A stretch of DNA of 64,000 nucleotides from Thermococcus sp. MV5 (GTDB lineage Archaea > Methanobacteriota_B > Thermococci > Thermococcales > Thermococcaceae): positions 124,001-188,000 of the forward strand of contig NZ_SNUE01000001.1 in the NCBI RefSeq assembly GCF_012027425.1, written 5' to 3'. Position 1 is the first letter of the stretch. Each line of letters starts with the position of its first letter. Of this stretch, positions 5,097 to 61,472 are shown piece by piece. The notes below the pieces were generated by a model. It made no database searches. It was not told where the DNA came from and worked only from the letters and a program-made list of their open reading frames with translations. The position numbers and the translations under genes were made by a program.

Positions 5097-5837
5097 ATGA
5101 AAAAGCTAAAATGGATAATCTTTGACGTTGACGGCGTTTTGATTGATATTACTGAGAGCTATGACCTAGCAACAAAGCTCACAGTAGAGTATTTTCTAAA
5201 AAAGCTTGGCAAAAACATTGAAGTTGACTTAAGGCTAATAAGGGCATTAAGAAAAAAAGGCGCTTTTGGAGATGATTTTAAAGTTAGTGAAGCGTTAATA
5301 TCTGGTGCTTTAAATGGAAAGTTAAGTGAGTTCGTTGAGAGCTTTCCAGAGGGAGAGGGGATTAAGTGGGTTAGAGAAAAATTTGGAATTACTGTTAAGT
5401 CAGAAGAAATTGAGAGAGTTTTCAATACCTTTTATTTAGGTGAATACTATGAAGAGAGTGCTTTTCAATTTGATGGACTTTGGAAAAAAGAGAAGCCGAT
5501 AGTTGAGAGTGAGCTCTTGAAAAGAGCAAGTGAAAAGTTTAAGCTTGGTGTTATAACTGGAAGGAACAAACTTGAGCTTAAATTAGCTGAAGAACTCATT
5601 GGCTTCCACTTTGAAAATGCAATTACAAGAGAGCTTTATGTTAAACCAAACCCAAAAGCTCTTTGGCACCTAGTTAAAGGAGAAAGAGGAGTTTATATTG
5701 GTGACACGGTAAACGATGGTCTTTTGGTGGAAAATTACAAAAAAGCTTATGGAAAAGAGTTTGGCTTTGTGATGATAGGAAGAGATGCAGAAGATGTGAA
5801 TGAAGCTATAGAAGAGCTACTAGGAAAGCATATCTGA
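5097..5837 (+). CDS. HAD-superfamily phosphatase, candidate histidinol-phosphatase
   Basis: A 246-residue HAD hydrolase of the IA type. Motif I is IIFDVDGVLIDIT with both nucleophile and acid/base aspartates. Motif II is LGVITGRNKLE. Motif III/IV is the lysine in VKPNPKALWHL with YIGDTVNDGLL. It resembles the archaeal/cyanobacterial HAD group often found near histidine genes. The cluster lacks a recognisable HisN or HisB-N, so histidinol-phosphate is a reasonable substrate, but this is inference. The stop TGA falls in the first bases of a mobile-element-like repeat at 5834-5877. Start ATG follows GGAGGT. Confidence 0.82.
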   Translation: MKKLKWIIFDVDGVLIDITESYDLATKLTVEYFLKKLGKNIEVDLRLIRALRKKGAFGDDFKVSEALISGALNGKLSEFVESFPEGEGIKWVREKFGITVKSEEIERVFNTFYLGEYYEESAFQFDGLWKKEKPIVESELLKRASEKFKLGVITGRNKLELKLAEELIGFHFENAITRELYVKPNPKALWHLVKGERGVYIGDTVNDGLLVENYKKAYGKEFGFVMIGRDAEDVNEAIEELLGKHI

Positions 5838-5877
5838 CCTTCTCCCCACCTAAAGGGCGATACTTTCAAGTAGAAAA
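5834..5877 (-). repeat. Short IS605-type LE/RE hybrid repeat
   Basis: Read on the minus strand, this 44-base stretch has a T-rich left edge, a hairpin core like GTATCGCCCTTTAGGTGGGG, and ends GGAGAAGGTCAG. That is the same order as the joined left and right ends of the complete element at 44450-46076. The five bases before it on that strand are TTTAC, matching the pattern seen at the other copies. The last bases provide the TGA stop of the HAD gene. No coding capacity. Confidence 0.7.
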
Positions 5878-6920: not shown

Positions 6921-6959
6921 CCTACCCCGCCCTAAAGGGCGAGGTTTTCAAGAGAAAAT
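6921..6959 (-). repeat. Hairpin repeat resembling an IS605-type end
   Basis: The stretch 6925-6944 forms a near-perfect stem with a four-base loop, core CGCCC-TTTA-GGGCG. Read on the minus strand it is preceded by TTTTCTCTTGAAAA and, before that, TTTAT, like the left edge of the complete element. The far end is GGGGTAGG, a poor match to the canonical GGAGGTCAG, so this copy is either decayed or only a left end. It separates the convergent proC and UbiD-family genes and could also act in 3' end formation. Confidence 0.6.
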
Positions 6960-6965
6960 ATAAAG

Positions 6966-37636: not shown

Positions 37637-37780
37637 GTGAGAGCATTGGTTTTCCATGGGAAGTTACATTTTCTTTTGAAAGCCTCACCCTTCAAGGAAG
37701 GGGAGGAGGTCAGCCACAATCTGATGGGAAAAGGTAGCAGTCCCAAAAATGAACTCATCAAAAAATTTTATCCCCATTAA
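37637..37780 (+). pseudogene. Remnant of a gal-locus gene (GH57-like start) carrying a mobile-element scar
   Basis: The galK stop TAA is followed at once by a GTG frame reading MRALVFHGKLH, which resembles, from memory, the N-terminus of GH57-family enzymes including the Pyrococcus alpha-galactosidase encoded beside galK. After about ten codons the reading enters the 46-base hairpin repeat (37668-37713) and ends at 37780 after 47 codons. I infer that the original gene was lost by an insertion followed by deletion. An expressed 47-residue peptide remains possible. Confidence 0.5.
37668..37713 (+). repeat. Short IS605-type LE/RE hybrid repeat
   Basis: A T-rich left edge, then AAGCCTCACCCTTC as at the left end of the complete element, running directly into AAGGAAGGGGAGGAGGTCAG as at its right end, 46 bases in all. 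The five bases before it are GTTAC. This looks like a solo copy left when the interior of an element was lost by recombination between its two similar hairpins. Confidence 0.75.
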
Positions 37781-44303: not shown

Positions 44304-44449
44304 TCACCTTTCTCCCTCCCATTCTTCAAGTAAAAGGCCGATTTCATTATACACCTTCACACTACTAAAGCCCTTATCTCTCAACACGCTGACAATATCT
44401 TTGATAATTCGCTTTTGTACATTCATAGCTATGGCCTGACAAAAGTGAC
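44304..44449 (-). pseudogene. MIP18/DUF59 gene, 3' half (interrupted by an IS element)
   Basis: The last 48 codons of a MIP18-family protein, reading HFCQAIAMNVQKRI and ending VKVYNEIGLLLEEWEGER. MIP18/PaaD-like proteins act in iron-sulfur cluster assembly or delivery. The 5' half is at 46077-46293; deleting 44450-46076 joins the halves in frame (217 + 146 = 363 bases, 120 codons plus stop) and restores the junction STPECHFCQA. An internal ATG at 44426 could make a 40-residue fragment. Both halves look undamaged, so the insertion is recent. Confidence 0.85.
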
Positions 44450-44571
44450 TTTTCTCTCTTCTCAAGCCTCACCCTTCGGGGCGGGGTGCAGTGTTTGGAA
44501 ATTCGCCCATTGAACAGGAAAGCAAAGAAAGATTTAAATACTTGTATGTTTTAATACTTAATGGTGGGACT

Positions 44572-44727
44572 ATGGGAGTCATAACTATCTCCGTTGACGA
44601 TGAGGTTGAAGAGAAGTTCCGGAAACTCGTGGCAAAGAAATACGGACGAATCAGGGGGACATTAGGAGTCGCAGTAACGGAAGCTATGAAACTCTGGATT
44701 GAAAAAGTCGAACGGAAGGAGAAATGA
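44572..44727 (+). CDS. Small ribbon-helix-helix protein inside the IS
   Basis: A 51-residue protein reading MGVITISVDDEVEEKFRKLV then VAVTEAMKLWIEKVERKEK, which fits a ribbon-helix-helix fold: one DNA-contacting strand and two helices. It has its own GGTGG ribosome site and a TATA-like TTTAAATAC at 44532-44540, and it overlaps tnpB by four bases (ATGA), so the two are translationally coupled. It may repress the tnpB promoter. The deleted copy at 60792 lacks it. An upstream in-frame GTG would place the start before the promoter. Confidence 0.75.
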   Translation: MGVITISVDDEVEEKFRKLVAKKYGRIRGTLGVAVTEAMKLWIEKVERKEK

Positions 44728-46028
44728 AGCGTTCGGTAACGATAAAACTACAACCCTCGAAGGAGCAGGAAGAAATCCTCTTCCAGTTAGGCCAAGCAAC
44801 AGCAATAATCTGGAACAAGCTAAACTATGAGAGACTAAAACAGTTCAAGGAGTTTAGCAAAATAGACTTTGGGACAACCGAAAAGGAAGCTTATTACACT
44901 TTCAAAGACTGGATTGGGGGTTCAACAGTCCAGCAGTTAGCGAGGAAGAATGCGGAAGCTTGGAGAAGCTTCTTCACCCTCAACCGGAAGAAAAAGGCCG
45001 GAGAACTTCCCGAATGGTTCAAACCAAAGCCCCCAAAATTCGTCAGGGAGAAGAACGGAAGGAAAATGTTCATTATCCCCCTGAGGAACGACCAGTATCG
45101 GGTCAAAGGGAACGTTCTGGAGTTGAGGAGGCTTGGAAAGTTCGGGAAGCTGGAAATCCAGTTCAAGGGGAGAATACACCTGAAGGGTAAGCAGGGACGC
45201 TTGGAAATCCAGTATGACGAAGTTAAACGCAAGTGGTATGCTCACGTTAGCCTTACGGTGGAGGAAAAACTTGAAGGCGAGGAGTGGGTTAAGCTTCCGA
45301 GGAAGCCAAAAGGAAACCTCTCGGCGGGCATTGACTTGGGAATAAACAATTTGATGGCCGTTTACGTGGAAAATGGGGAAAGCTTTCTCGTGAATGGCAG
45401 GCTATTAAAGAGTATTGACTTCTATTGGCAGAAGAGGGTTGCTGATTACCAGTCCAAACTCAACAAGAGTGGAGCCAAAACGAGCAGGAAGCTCAGGAGA
45501 ATGCATGAAAAAGCCAAGTTACAGGCTAAGCATTACATTAATAGTGCAGTCAGAGGAACGGTTGAGAGGCTTTACGAGTTGGGCGTCTCCACAATTATTG
45601 TTGGCTATCCGAAGGGAATACCAAGAAACTCCGATAAGGGCAAGAAGCAGAATTTCCTCCTTTCCCACGTGTGGCGGTTTAATTACGTCATAAAACGCTT
45701 GAAGGAAGTGGCTGAGGAGTATGGTATTAGAGTTTTGGTTGTTGATGAGGCTTTCACTTCTCAAACTTGCCCTCTCTGCGGCCAACGCCATTCTGATGGA
45801 AGAATCTTTAGAGGTTTGTTTGAGTGCCAGGGGGAGGGCGTTGTTATGAATGCTGACTTGGTTGGAGCTTTCAACATTTTGAAAAAGGTGGTGAGAACGA
45901 TAACCCCGAGCCTTCCCGCTTTGGCGGGAGGTAGGGGTAATGGGGGGAAGGCCCTCCCCGAGGGGCTGAAAGCCCACTTTTTAGTGGATTTAAATGAAGC
46001 CCCTCAAACCTCCCTGCCAAGTGGTTAA
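44724..46028 (+). CDS. tnpB: TnpB RNA-guided endonuclease (IS605 family)
   Basis: A 434-residue TnpB, the ancestor-like relative of Cas12 nucleases, which uses an RNA from the right end of its own element to cut target DNA. The RuvC-like residues are Asp204 in SAGIDLGINNLMAV, Glu342 in VVDEAFTSQTC and Asp378 in VMNADLVGAFNIL. The zinc-finger region has CPLCGQ and a later FEC, but the fourth usual cysteine is absent (CQGEG), a variation I believe occurs in Thermococcales relatives. N-terminal MKRSVTIKLQPSKEQEEILF is the OrfB/HTH start. The gene appears intact. Confidence 0.93.
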   Translation: MKRSVTIKLQPSKEQEEILFQLGQATAIIWNKLNYERLKQFKEFSKIDFGTTEKEAYYTFKDWIGGSTVQQLARKNAEAWRSFFTLNRKKKAGELPEWFKPKPPKFVREKNGRKMFIIPLRNDQYRVKGNVLELRRLGKFGKLEIQFKGRIHLKGKQGRLEIQYDEVKRKWYAHVSLTVEEKLEGEEWVKLPRKPKGNLSAGIDLGINNLMAVYVENGESFLVNGRLLKSIDFYWQKRVADYQSKLNKSGAKTSRKLRRMHEKAKLQAKHYINSAVRGTVERLYELGVSTIIVGYPKGIPRNSDKGKKQNFLLSHVWRFNYVIKRLKEVAEEYGIRVLVVDEAFTSQTCPLCGQRHSDGRIFRGLFECQGEGVVMNADLVGAFNILKKVVRTITPSLPALAGGRGNGGKALPEGLKAHFLVDLNEAPQTSLPSG

Positions 46029-46092
46029 GGGGTTCCTCGTTGGAACCCTCGCCCTTCAAGGCGGGGAGGAGGTCAGACTCTGGGGTACTCCT
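45910..46092 (+). ncRNA. Probable omega (guide) RNA from the IS right end
   Basis: The end of tnpB and the right end hold several stem-loops: CCCC-GA-GGGG near 45956, CCACTTTTTAGTGG near 45977, GGGTTCC-TCGTT-GGAACCC near 46031, and the terminal hairpin. The same order is kept in the deleted copy. In characterised TnpB systems, this region is a guide RNA whose guide is the sequence just past the right end, here starting at 46077 (ACTCTGGGGTACTCC). The 5' border is a guess. Confidence 0.6.
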
Positions 46093-46293
46093 CGCTAAGA
46101 GGAGCCACACCATAACGTTCTTACCTTCAACTGTAATACCATATACCAGCCCTTCATCTACTATGTTAAGCTCAGTTTCAGGATCTTTTACTTTTTTGAG
46201 TTCTTCTACTACCTCTCCAACTTCAGGGGAAAGTTCCTTAATTCTTCCTTTAGGTTTCTCTCTAATAAAATCTAAAAATCCCATCCTTTTCAC
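46077..46293 (-). pseudogene. MIP18/DUF59 gene, 5' half (interrupted by an IS element)
   Basis: The first 72 codons, from a GTG overlapping the stop of the upstream DUF59 gene (or ATG at 46284). It reads KDPETELNIVDEGLVYGITV, the core of the MIP18 fold, then LLLARSTPE, where the element begins. Translation would run on into the IS and give a chimeric C-terminus. The matching 3' half is at 44304-44449. The interrupted protein is the one with a CHFC motif, whereas its intact neighbour lacks these cysteines. Confidence 0.86.
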
Positions 46294-46610
46294 TTTTTCT
46301 CAAATTTTGCGAGTAAATTATTCCCCATATCGTATATATAGACTCGTGAGAACTTTACAAGGGCAAAACGCTCCATTATATCACCTATTATTTTTGAGTG
46401 TGCTATTGCAGCTCCACCTATCATATTATAGTAAGTGTTACTTTCCACCGCCAGCCATATCTCAAGAGTTTCCTCATTTACATTCAACCCTGCTATAAGC
46501 CCGACATCAAGAAGGTTCATAGTACTTATAGGGTCGATAACAGTGGCAAGTTCCTTGAGAACTTCTTGATACTCCTTTGGATACTCTCGATCTTTTCTGT
46601 AAATTTTCAT
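46290..46610 (-). CDS. MIP18/DUF59-family protein without the CHFC motif
   Basis: A 106-residue protein with the MIP18 fold pattern: IDPISTMNLLDVGLIAGLNV followed by EIWLAVESNTYYNMIGGA. The position that is CHFC in the broken downstream paralogue is NTYYN here, so no cysteine ligand is available at that site. Family members assist Fe-S cluster assembly; a cysteine-free form may be a partner rather than a carrier. Its stop overlaps the start of the interrupted gene, so the two probably worked as a pair. Confidence 0.8.
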   Translation of the reverse strand: MKIYRKDREYPKEYQEVLKELATVIDPISTMNLLDVGLIAGLNVNEETLEIWLAVESNTYYNMIGGAAIAHSKIIGDIMERFALVKFSRVYIYDMGNNLLAKFEKK

Positions 46611-50438: not shown

Positions 50439-50772
50439 TCACCTCCAGCCTAGGGCAAAGTTGATGGTATTAAAATAAAAAGTTTTGCCATGAACATGTT
50501 GGCAAGTGGGAAAAGAGGTTATAAAAAAAGTTCTCTTTATTAATGCTCTCTCAAGTATGAGAAGCATCTTAGAGAGGAGAACATTTGAAGTCCTTTTATC
50601 AACTCCTGTGAAGACCTTCTTTCTTGCAAGTTTATTAAATAATTTGATTCTCATAAAGTGTATATTTTAAGATTCCTCTTAATCAAACCTTTTGAACAGT
50701 AATGATTTATTCTTCCGAAAGGGCAAGACTTTCGGACGGGGAGGAGGTCAGCTTAGATGACTTGTATTGTAG
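50439..50772. other. Intergenic region: tfs promoter, doubtful 71-codon frame, hairpin repeat
   Basis: About 330 bases. On the minus strand an ATG frame at 50439-50654 could encode 71 residues (MRIKLFNKLARKKVFTG...), but its second half lies across the tfs promoter and ribosome site and has low-complexity look, so I do not call it a gene. A solo hairpin repeat lies at 50707-50751, just beyond the end of the AAA ATPase gene. Confidence 0.45.
50707..50751 (+). repeat. Short IS605-type LE/RE hybrid repeat
   Basis: A 45-base copy preceded by ATGAT. The T-rich edge TTATTCTTCC leads to a hairpin CCGAAAG...CTTTCGG and then GACGGGGAGGAGGTCAG, the canonical right-end terminus. The hairpin stem differs in sequence from the other copies but is still perfectly paired, suggesting that pairing is what matters. 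It lies 21 bases past the stop of the AAA ATPase gene. Confidence 0.7.
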
Positions 50773-52254
50773 TTACTTTAAATCCTGCTCGGTTAGAATT
50801 TTGACTCCCAGCTTTTTACAGGCCTCAAGTGCGTTTTTTGTAAAACCAGTCTTGGAGAAAAAGTACATATCTCCTTCTCCAAACTCGCTTTTCACTTTCT
50901 TGACGAAAGCTTCAACATCCTTGTAAGTCGTGGGCCTACCCCTCCATCTCACTTCAAGTACACAAGGCCTTTCTCTAAAGGCCACTCCGTCAAACTCAAT
51001 CTCTCCCCTTCTGTAAGGTTTAAAATCAAGACCAATGATTTCTCTAAGTCTTTCACGAACCCAAGCCTCGCCCGTAAGGCCAAGCTCGATTTTGGCCTTC
51101 AGAAACTTCTCCTCAAGCTCTCTAATCAGTTCCTCGCGTAGTTTTTCTCTCCTCAACTCAAATTCCGTGATTCCAAGATAAGTCTTGGCCAGCCAGAAGC
51201 GCATGAGCTTGTCTGTGAAGTAATAGCGTCCGTTCTCCCGAGTTATTAAGTCTGTCCTGAGAAGGAACTTGAGGTAGTTCGAAACCTCTCCGCTCGGCTT
51301 TCCAAGTCTCTTTGCAACCTCCGAGAGCTTAAGGCCCTCCTCTCTCGCAAGAATAAGTAATATCTCCCTGTGAACCGGTCCCCTATAGGCTCTTGAGAGG
51401 GATTCGTTGAACACATAGTCGAGATGCATGTAGATGTCCCCACTTTCCATGAGGAGCTCCGTCAGAAACGCATATTCAACTTCCCTTTTACTGACTTTCT
51501 CGAACCCCTCTTCGATAAGTCTCCTGCAGACAGCGTGGATGTAAAACGGATGTCCACTGGTAAGTTTATAAAGCGCCTCCAGTGCCGAGTTGGAGTATTC
51601 AATCTCTGCGTTTTCGAATATGGCCCTAGCGAGAATGAAGGTGTCCTCCTTAGGAAGGCCCGTGAGATAGATCCTCCTGAACTGTCCAAAGAACGGCTTT
51701 TCCGCAGAAAGAATTTCCTCCATCATCCTCACCGCTGAACCGGAGATAAAGTAGGCAATGTTCTCCTGCTTCTCGGTTACGGCCCTCATGAGTTCTAGGA
51801 AGCTAGAAATGTTTCTGACCTCCTGAAACTCGTCGAGGATGAAAACTGCCTTCTGGCCAAGCTTCTCCAAGATATCCTCTTGAAGCTCAAAAAGCACCCC
51901 CATGTCCCCGGTCTTGATAGCCTTTGCCTCATTCTCAACACCAAGCTTGGCTGCAAGTATCAAAAGGTCATCCCAATCCAACAGCTTACTTCTTTCAACT
52001 TCAATAGCATCGGCCTTTCCAAGTTCGTAAAGGAGCTCCCGAAGGTAAGCGAAGACAAACGACTCAATGGTTCCTACTCTTTGGAGGTTCAGGTAAGGGA
52101 TAACTCCATTAGTACTCTCCTTGAACTTCAAGAGTAACTCTGTCTTTCCTATTCTTCTAGGGCCTATGATGGCAAGATTTACCCTATGTCCTTTTTTCAG
52201 GGAGTCATATGCGCTCTTTAATATTTCCAACTCTCTTCTTCTGTTCACGAACAT
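50773..52254 (-). CDS. Archaeal AAA ATPase with C-terminal nuclease-like DUF234
   Basis: A 493-residue member of the archaeal ATPase family (PF01637 type). Walker A is IIGPRRIGKTELLLKF near residue 30, Walker B is AVFILDEFQEVRN near 140, and sensor ISGSAVRMMEEIL follows. A winged-helix segment (LSEVAKRLGKPSGEVSNYL) precedes a C-terminal DUF234 domain with EFDGVAFRERPCVLEVRW, like the restriction-endonuclease-type fold (D...E-x-K/R). The family is variable in copy number and of unknown function, possibly linked to mobile DNA. Its GC content looks higher than the neighbours. A 28-bp palindrome covers its promoter. Confidence 0.85.
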   Translation of the reverse strand: MFVNRRRELEILKSAYDSLKKGHRVNLAIIGPRRIGKTELLLKFKESTNGVIPYLNLQRVGTIESFVFAYLRELLYELGKADAIEVERSKLLDWDDLLILAAKLGVENEAKAIKTGDMGVLFELQEDILEKLGQKAVFILDEFQEVRNISSFLELMRAVTEKQENIAYFISGSAVRMMEEILSAEKPFFGQFRRIYLTGLPKEDTFILARAIFENAEIEYSNSALEALYKLTSGHPFYIHAVCRRLIEEGFEKVSKREVEYAFLTELLMESGDIYMHLDYVFNESLSRAYRGPVHREILLILAREEGLKLSEVAKRLGKPSGEVSNYLKFLLRTDLITRENGRYYFTDKLMRFWLAKTYLGITEFELRREKLREELIRELEEKFLKAKIELGLTGEAWVRERLREIIGLDFKPYRRGEIEFDGVAFRERPCVLEVRWRGRPTTYKDVEAFVKKVKSEFGEGDMYFFSKTGFTKNALEACKKLGVKILTEQDLK

Positions 52255-52264
52255 AAGACATCAC

Positions 52265-52292
52265 ATTATAGTTTTATGCATAAAACTATAAT
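52265..52292. promoter_or_regulatory. 28-bp perfect palindrome at the ATPase promoter
   Basis: The half site ATTATAGTTTTATG is followed without gap by its exact reverse complement. The symmetric sequence contains TATA-like elements in both directions and lies ten bases before the ATG of the AAA ATPase gene. It is the right size for a dimeric repressor site, perhaps autoregulation by the winged-helix part of the ATPase. Confidence 0.65.
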
Positions 52293-52381
52293 ACATTAGG
52301 CTTTTATGCTTTTCGGAGTTGATGGATAGAAAGAATCTAGAAAAGTTCTAATCATCGCAGGTGACGTTGAGAGTAGGGAAG

Positions 52382-52436
52382 TTCTGGCAGTCTGGATACA
52401 ACCCTTCGGAACTGGTAGGTTGCCAGGATTTTTATT
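52382..52436 (+). ncRNA. Possible structured RNA or terminator-like hairpin
   Basis: TTCTGGCA at 52382-52389 pairs fully with TGCCAGGA at 52421-52428 (8 bp, two G-T wobbles), enclosing a second possible CAACC/GGTTG pairing, and is followed by TTTTT. The spacer around it (52293-52534) has no open frame. It could be the 3' part of a small RNA or a decayed insertion; I cannot assign a class. Confidence 0.25.
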
Positions 52437-52534
52437 CTGGTTGTTTTTAAAATCTTGCATTAATCAGCCTGTTGATAGGAAAAGTTACTGAATAACTTTA
52501 AGACGTGATGCCGCACTTATCCCGACAGTATCGG

Positions 52535-60791: not shown

Positions 60792-61325
60792 TTTTTTCTT
60801 TCTCCAAGCCTCGCCCTTCAGGGGCGGGGTAAAGTATTCAAAGATTAAGCCATTGAGTGGGAAAGCAACATTATTTTAAACCCCAAAATCATACCATACT
60901 TTGAGATGAAGCGCTCAGTGACTGTAAAACTTCAACCCTCGAAAGAGCAGAAAAAAGCACTATTCCAATTACCAAAGGCTCAAACAATTCAAAGAATATG
61001 ATAAAATAGACTTTGGGACAACTGGAAAGGAAGCCTATCATAACTTCAAAGAGTGGCTTGGGGACTCGACTGTTCAACAATTAGCCCGGAAGAACGCCGA
61101 CCTTGTCGGAGCGTTCAACATCTTGAAGAAGGTTGTGAGAATGATAACCCCAAGTCTGAGCGGGCTTTACGCTCAGAGGAGGGGTAATGGGGGGAAGGCC
61201 CTCCCCGAGGGGTTCGAAGAACCCTCTTTGAGAATTCCCCTGATGAGAACCCCTCAAACCTCCCCGTCACTAGTGAAGGGTTAACTCGCTAGAACCCTCA
61301 CCCTTCAAAGCAGGGAGGAGGTCAG
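60792..61325 (+). mobile_element. Internally deleted IS605-type element
   Basis: A 534-base relative of the element at 44450. The left end starts TTTTTTCTTTCTCCAAGCC after GTGAT, with hairpin CCTCGCCCTTCAGGGGCGGGG, and the right end finishes GGGAGGAGGTCAG. The interior lacks the RHH gene and most of tnpB. The right-end stem-loops are kept. Such an element could still be moved in trans and could still make a guide RNA. Confidence 0.87.
60906..61284 (+). pseudogene. tnpB remnant with a large internal deletion
   Basis: Starts MKRSVTVKLQPSKEQKKALF like the intact tnpB. It lacks about 40 bases near codon 22, which shifts the frame, and then jumps from the codons for QQLARKNA directly to those for DLVGAFNILKKVVRM. 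The junction near 61091-61100 falls at a short similarity (AATGCGGA and AATGCTGA in the intact gene), so the deletion probably arose through microhomology. The C-terminal GNGGKALPEG region remains. No nuclease activity is possible. Confidence 0.88.
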
Positions 61326-61406: not shown

Positions 61407-61472
61407 TTGCCAATGATGAGTGTCATCCCAGCCGATGGAAAGATGACGACGTTTTATCCCCACCTGAGGTGC
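61407..61472 (+). ncRNA. Candidate C/D box sRNA
   Basis: Box C ATGATGA (61413-61419), 12 bases, box D' CCGA (61432-61435), 7 bases, box C' ATGACGA (61443-61449, one mismatch), 14 bases, box D CTGA (61464-61467). The outer bases GCC and GGT can close a short terminal stem. A TATA-like GATTTATTTCGG lies about 20 bases upstream. Such RNAs guide 2'-O-methylation of rRNA or tRNA with fibrillarin, Nop5 and L7Ae. D guide is CGTTTTATCCCCAC and D' guide is GTGTCATCCCAG; targets not identified. Confidence 0.6.

What the first reader, a model, noticed from the sequence alone, without database searches (positions are those of the whole stretch)
44304..46293. IS605-type element inserted in a MIP18/DUF59 gene; exact removal restores a CHFC-containing 120-residue protein
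The minus-strand halves 46293-46077 (217 bases) and 44449-44304 (146 bases) join to 363 bases, exactly 121 codons, and the junction reads STPECHFCQA. This fixes the element as 44450-46076 with left target GTGAC and no duplication, as expected for single-strand IS200/IS605 transposition. Both halves are undamaged, so the event is recent and excision could reactivate the gene. The guide expected from the right end (from 46077) would match precisely the empty site next to GTGAC, which is what the known TnpB retention mechanism predicts.
Basis: partly seen in the sequence, partly recalled or inferred. Interest (0 to 1): 0.75.

Follow-up and report, generated by a model that had tools for sequence, protein, structure and literature searches.

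The report
TnpB transposon splitting a DUF59 gene
A 1,627-base jumping element has recently and cleanly split an iron-sulfur-assembly-type gene in a heat-loving archaeon; it carries the RNA-guided DNA cutter TnpB but no transposase, and in the transposase's place it has a small DNA-binding-type protein, a pairing that recurs with three TnpB families and for which we found no report.

Summary
Removing 44450-46076 restores a 120-residue DUF59/PF01883 protein, and eleven relatives carry the uninterrupted locus. The two closest align across the junction without loss or duplication. The element is IS200/IS605, IS1341-like (tnpB without tnpA). About 120 relatives in Thermococcaceae share its right end. 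Where left ends could be read (102), cleavage sites and guide tetranucleotides covary as in IS608. This one is TGAC/CAAG left and TCAG/GAAC right, so the target is TGAC, not GTGAC. TnpB keeps its conserved acidic and zinc residues. Its 3' end matches Rfam HgcC and runs into the flank, as an omega RNA should; the guide fits the empty site of the closest species 20/20 and 19/20. The genome has no detectable Y1 TnpA, so mobilisation must have been in trans (inferred). Excision and nuclease activity are untested. It precedes tnpB in 27 of 130 family copies, where tnpA lies in 9 others. Related proteins overlap two further TnpB families. I found no report of this pairing; I propose that it represses its own operon. 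The genome also holds about 20 solo-hairpin remnants.

The parts
44450..46076 (+). whole element, 1,627 bp, no target duplication
   Evidence: exact empty sites in G003 and G007; right end shared by about 120 copies with differing flanks
44446..44449 (+). target / left cleavage site (CL) TGAC, presumed TAM
44463..44466 (+). left guide tetranucleotide (GL) CAAG
   Evidence: covaries with CL in the family; pairing scheme from PMC5934647
44467..44486 (+). left-end subterminal hairpin CCTCACCCTTCGGGGCGGGG
   Evidence: sequence; conserved in the family
44516..44540 (+). BRE/TATA-like promoter (GGAAAGC...TTTAAATA)
   Evidence: conserved upstream of the first gene in family copies; archaeal promoter reading from general knowledge
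44572..44727 (+). 51-residue ribbon-helix-helix-like protein, ATGA overlap with tnpB
44724..46028 (+). tnpB, 434 aa; D204, E342, D378 and zinc ligands C349 C352 H356 C368 conserved
   Evidence: PF01385 2.1e-28, PF07282 1.1e-16; NF040570 guided_TnpB 1.1e-49; conservation
45940..46089 (+). HgcC (RF00062) RNA match = predicted omega RNA; last 13 nt are flank, i.e. guide
   Evidence: 54.9 bits, gathering 50
46043..46046 (+). right guide tetranucleotide (GR) GAAC
46047..46066 (+). right-end subterminal hairpin CCTCGCCCTTCAAGGCGGGG
46073..46076 (+). right cleavage site (CR) TCAG, end of element
46077..46096 (+). predicted guide ACTCTGGGGTACTCCTCGCT
   Evidence: matches the empty site of G003 20/20 and G007 19/20 next to TGAC (read from the alignment)
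46077..46293 (-). 5' part of the interrupted DUF59/PF01883 gene
44304..44449 (-). 3' part of the interrupted DUF59/PF01883 gene; split inside Cys codon 73

Best explanation
A recent IS200/IS605-family, IS1341-like insertion (tnpB without tnpA) in a DUF59-family gene. Shown: exact borders, target TGAC, hairpins, guide/cleavage tetranucleotides that obey the IS608 pairing rule, an intact TnpB reading frame, an HgcC/omega-RNA match running into the flank, intact gene halves, and a small RHH-like gene overlapping the start of tnpB. Inferred: a Y1 TnpA in trans (since lost, unassembled, or in the donor) moved it as a single strand. TnpB with its HgcC-type omega RNA cuts the TGAC-flanked empty site left after excision, or in a related chromosome, so that the element is restored by repair. 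The RHH protein binds the promoter and keeps tnpB expression low.
For: Borders and empty sites. Family and domains. Right end ...GGAGGTCAG shared with variable flanks. Covariation: CL2-GL1 88/102 Watson-Crick, 0 of 20,000 shuffles as good; CL4-GL4 95/102, 0 of 20,000; CR4-GR4 86/103, 3 of 20,000; same pair scheme as the IS608 structure. tnpA lies between the left end and tnpB in 9 family copies, and family genomes carry Y1 TnpA. Nuclease residues conserved. Omega RNA; T. kodakarensis HgcC1-3 are transcribed in sense from within transposase genes (PMC4247193). RHH coupling.
Against: No tnpA in this genome, which is a draft (95.9% complete, 101 contigs), so the mobilising enzyme is not seen. No experiment on this TnpB; its catalytic glutamate is at the alternative position. 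The shuffles do not correct for relatedness. The RHH assignment rests on weak profile hits (RHH_6 0.0017 and RHH_1 0.0052 for a relative) and Foldseek matches with E above 1 but TM about 0.6. A repressor role is not shown, and no operator was established.
Confidence: 0.88

Rival explanations
1. IS607-type element (serine recombinase), which also leaves no target duplication.
For: No duplication; TnpB also occurs in IS607.
Against: Subterminal hairpins with covarying IS608-type guides; Y1 tnpA in the same position in family copies; fixed TGAC/TTAC targets; NF038280 IS607_TnpB far below its cut-off.
Confidence: 0.02
2. The element is immobile now and TnpB/RHH are relics; the insertion will only decay.
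For: No tnpA in the genome; the other copies here are internally deleted or reduced.
Against: TnpB, RHH and both ends are intact and conserved; the insertion is younger than the split from G007.
Confidence: 0.35
3. The RHH protein is not a repressor but a TnpB partner (antitoxin-like inhibitor or RNP cofactor), or helps transposition in place of TnpA.
For: Overlap with tnpB and occupation of the tnpA slot; best fold matches include ParD antitoxins.
Against: 51 residues is a bare DNA-binding unit; many copies lack it (94 of 130), so it is dispensable.
Confidence: 0.25
4. The two gene halves are separate real genes or an assembly chimera.
For: None found.
Against: Uninterrupted orthologues in the congeners, and colinear flanks over tens of kilobases.
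Confidence: 0.01

Closest known systems
IS1341-like group of IS200/IS605 (tnpB without tnpA)
   Same: tnpB alone, hairpin ends, no target duplication, 3' sense-overlapping guide RNA
   Different: a small RHH-like gene overlaps the tnpB start; target TGAC
IS608 (Helicobacter pylori)
   Same: CL/GL and CR/GR pairing scheme (TTAC/AAAG, TCAA/GAAT; PMC5934647)
   Different: no tnpA here; tetranucleotides TGAC/CAAG and TCAG/GAAC
ISDka2 of Hyperthermophilic Archaeal Virus 2
   Same: nearest named TnpB hit among phage records, 48% identity over 95%; IS200/IS605 with orfA and orfB
   Different: carries orfA; only the TnpB match was examined
HgcC RNA (RF00062) and sot0042 (RF02656)
   Same: the element's 3' end matches both models, HgcC above and sot0042 below its gathering score
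   Different: Rfam names HgcC only as an RNA family; I found no paper calling it an omega RNA
TnpB of ISDra2 / SisTnpB of Sulfolobus islandicus
   Same: guided TnpB with a 5' TAM corresponding to the TnpA target (PMC11043419)
   Different: glutamate of the catalytic triad at the alternative position (from general knowledge of the canonical one); activity not tested

Membership tests
IS200/IS605 | Y1 (HUH) transposase TnpA in the element (defines autonomous members; tnpB-only members are grouped as IS1341-like) | tested here: not met
   none in element or genome; present in sister copies of the family
IS200/IS605 | subterminal hairpins at both ends with 5' guide tetranucleotides pairing with the cleavage sites | tested here: met
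   scheme
IS200/IS605 | insertion 3' of a short fixed target, no duplication | tested here: met
   TGAC
IS1341-like (tnpB-only) group | tnpB without tnpA, IS200/IS605-type ends | tested here: met
RNA-guided TnpB nuclease | RuvC D/E/D and zinc ribbon; NF040570 above cut-off | tested here: met
   169.8 bits against 100; residues; E342 at the alternative position
RNA-guided TnpB nuclease | omega RNA spanning tnpB 3' end, right end and flank | tested here: met
   RF00062 above gathering, 45940-46089
RNA-guided TnpB nuclease | guided cleavage of TAM-flanked DNA | not testable with these tools
   needs biochemistry
Ribbon-helix-helix (MetJ/Arc/CopG) | strand-helix-helix fold | tested here: inconclusive
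   AlphaFold pLDDT 91, helices 10-24 and 30-50 after an extended N-terminus; top fold hits PrpA-RHH, ParD, MatP with TM 0.55-0.64 but E above 1; weak Pfam RHH hits for one relative
MIP18/DUF59 (PF01883) | profile match of the joined protein | tested here: met
   41.5 bits against cut-off 23.5

The most novel reading that the evidence does not exclude
Thermococcaceae carry a distinct RHH-TnpB operon type in which a small RHH protein, in the slot otherwise held by the transposase gene, controls an RNA-guided nuclease whose guide RNA is the long-known orphan RNA HgcC. It has been joined to at least three TnpB families, possibly as an antitoxin-like brake on a guided nuclease.
Probability: 0.45. 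Interest if true: 0.7.

Novelty: new variant of a known kind. Interest (0 to 1): 0.5.

Why it matters
The locus is a clean case for testing TnpB-based transposon retention in a hyperthermophile, with two sister species as ready-made empty sites. The family gives a natural experiment in target switching (TTAC, TGAC, TTAT, TGAT) with matching guide changes. It links an orphan Rfam RNA, HgcC, to TnpB, and shows a recurrent small regulator-like gene coupled to tnpB for which I found no report.

Tried and rejected
The 5-base target GTGAC was rejected because the first base varies. An IS607 origin was rejected (hairpins, guides, Y1 TnpA in sisters). A closer source copy in this genome was sought: only decayed or deleted copies were found. 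No plasmid match. A common RHH operator was sought in the leaders: AATACTT occurs in 10 of 27 RHH copies against 1 of 94 others, but this follows subclades and is not proof. Naming the organism failed: the own record is left out of genome-contig results; its relatives there are Thermococcaceae. Loss of selection on the split gene: 3 synonymous and 5 nonsynonymous changes on the own branch, too few to judge. The CR2-GR1 pair does not vary enough to test. A first fuzzy-pattern scan timed out and was replaced.

Full report
Observation. The two minus-strand halves join to 363 bases, 120 codons plus stop, and the product matches PF01883. A search of the genus found the uninterrupted locus in eleven of twelve congeners; the alignment places every one of them at the same codon, inside Cys73 of the CHFC stretch. 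Ten read straight through and draft genome G012 is frameshifted there. Aligning the whole window to syntenic regions of the two closest genomes gives adjacent coordinates across 44449|46077 in both. The insertion is therefore real, exact, without duplication, and younger than the split from these species.

The element. TnpB matches PF01385, PF07282 and NF040570. In 94 Thermococcaceae genomes, 62 hold close relatives. I read 130 copies: nearly all whose right end could be read finish in GGAGGTCAG or a close variant, followed by different flanks, which fixes the right border independently. Left ends read target, pyrimidine tract, guide tetranucleotide, hairpin. Two main target classes occur: TGAC with guide CAAG and TTAC with guide AAAG, plus TTAT/AAAA and TGAT/CAAA. 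The pairs CL2-GL1 and CL4-GL4, and at the right end CR4-GR4, covary. This is the scheme of the IS608 structure, in which the first two guide bases pair with the second and first target bases (PMC5934647). The shuffles ignore relatedness, but the first guide base changes at least six times on the TnpB tree, so this is more than one event. The window copy has TGAC/CAAG and GAAC/TCAG, all pairs intact.

Mobilisation. The genome has no Y1 TnpA; 25 of 94 family genomes do, and nine of the surveyed copies carry tnpA between the left end and tnpB. All nine lie outside the clade (at least 77% TnpB identity) to which the window copy belongs. Because the target is read by the guide DNA and not by the protein, a TnpA from the sister class could in principle serve; this is inference.

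TnpB and its RNA. D204, E342, D378 and C349, C352, H356, C368 are conserved in at least 98% of 119 sequences. The glutamate is at the alternative position, on the strand just before the zinc ribbon. The 3' part of tnpB with the right end and 13 flank bases matches Rfam HgcC above its gathering score. In T. kodakarensis, HgcC1-3 are transcribed in sense from starts inside transposase genes (PMC4247193). I read HgcC as the omega RNA of this TnpB group; I found no paper that says so, with limited searches. The first 20 bases of flank match the empty site of G003 at 20 and of G007 at 19 positions next to TGAC (read from the alignment). The match in the own genome is true by construction and proves nothing.

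The small gene in front. A 51-residue protein (44572-44727) ends in an ATGA overlap with tnpB. Its closest relatives lie directly in front of family tnpB genes; 27 of 130 copies have it, 9 have tnpA there, 94 neither. More distant relatives overlap the start of two other TnpB families: one with a GTGA overlap and one with an 11-base overlap. In the phylum the profile hits only this family's genomes. The model has two helices after an extended N-terminus, and the best-placed fold matches are RHH domains with TM about 0.6, though the E-values are not significant for so short a chain. The presence of the gene is patchy on the TnpB tree (at least 13 changes, 7 forced by well-supported branches). 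Searches for TnpB with ribbon-helix-helix found nothing on point. An autorepressor is my first guess, an antitoxin-like partner second.

Host gene. It lies between a degenerate DUF59-like gene with a molybdopterin oxidoreductase upstream and an aldo/keto reductase downstream. A second DUF59 paralogue elsewhere in the genome is about 44% identical, so function may not be lost outright. Neither half has a stop or frameshift.

Limits. No reads, no expression data, one genome per species, and a draft assembly. Mobility, nuclease activity, retention and the RHH role are inferred from anatomy and from named relatives.

Noticed in passing
5834-5877 (-), 37669-37713 (+), about 6921-6963 (-); loci L204-L230 on contigs C1-C7: About 20 solo-hairpin remnants of some 45 nt in this genome: left-end tract and guide, one hairpin, right-end terminus. 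The one at 5834-5877 has an exact empty site in G003. They look like deletions between the two near-identical end hairpins; mobility as mini-elements is not excluded.
   Followed up: partly
37669-37713: At this solo hairpin about 3.5 kb of genes present in G003 and G007 (including an MFS transporter and a glycosidase-like gene) are missing.
   Followed up: partly
60794-61325: Internally deleted relative of the element, next to about 113 bp that G007 has and this genome lacks.
   Followed up: partly
50493-52532: About 2 kb present here and absent from G003 and G007; holds a 495-residue ORF (minus) that looks like an archaeal P-loop ATPase, and a right-end-like piece at 50729-50751.
   Followed up: no
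46290-46610 (-): 106-residue protein beside the split gene, weakly similar to SufT/DUF59 proteins, overlapping it by stop/start.
   Followed up: no
61409-61469: C/D box sRNA sR55 (RF01307).
   Followed up: no
L088-L095, L284-L288: Two further TnpB families preceded by RHH genes with overlapping stop/start; the first (355-codon ORF) shows no Pfam hit and matches TIGR01765.
   Followed up: partly
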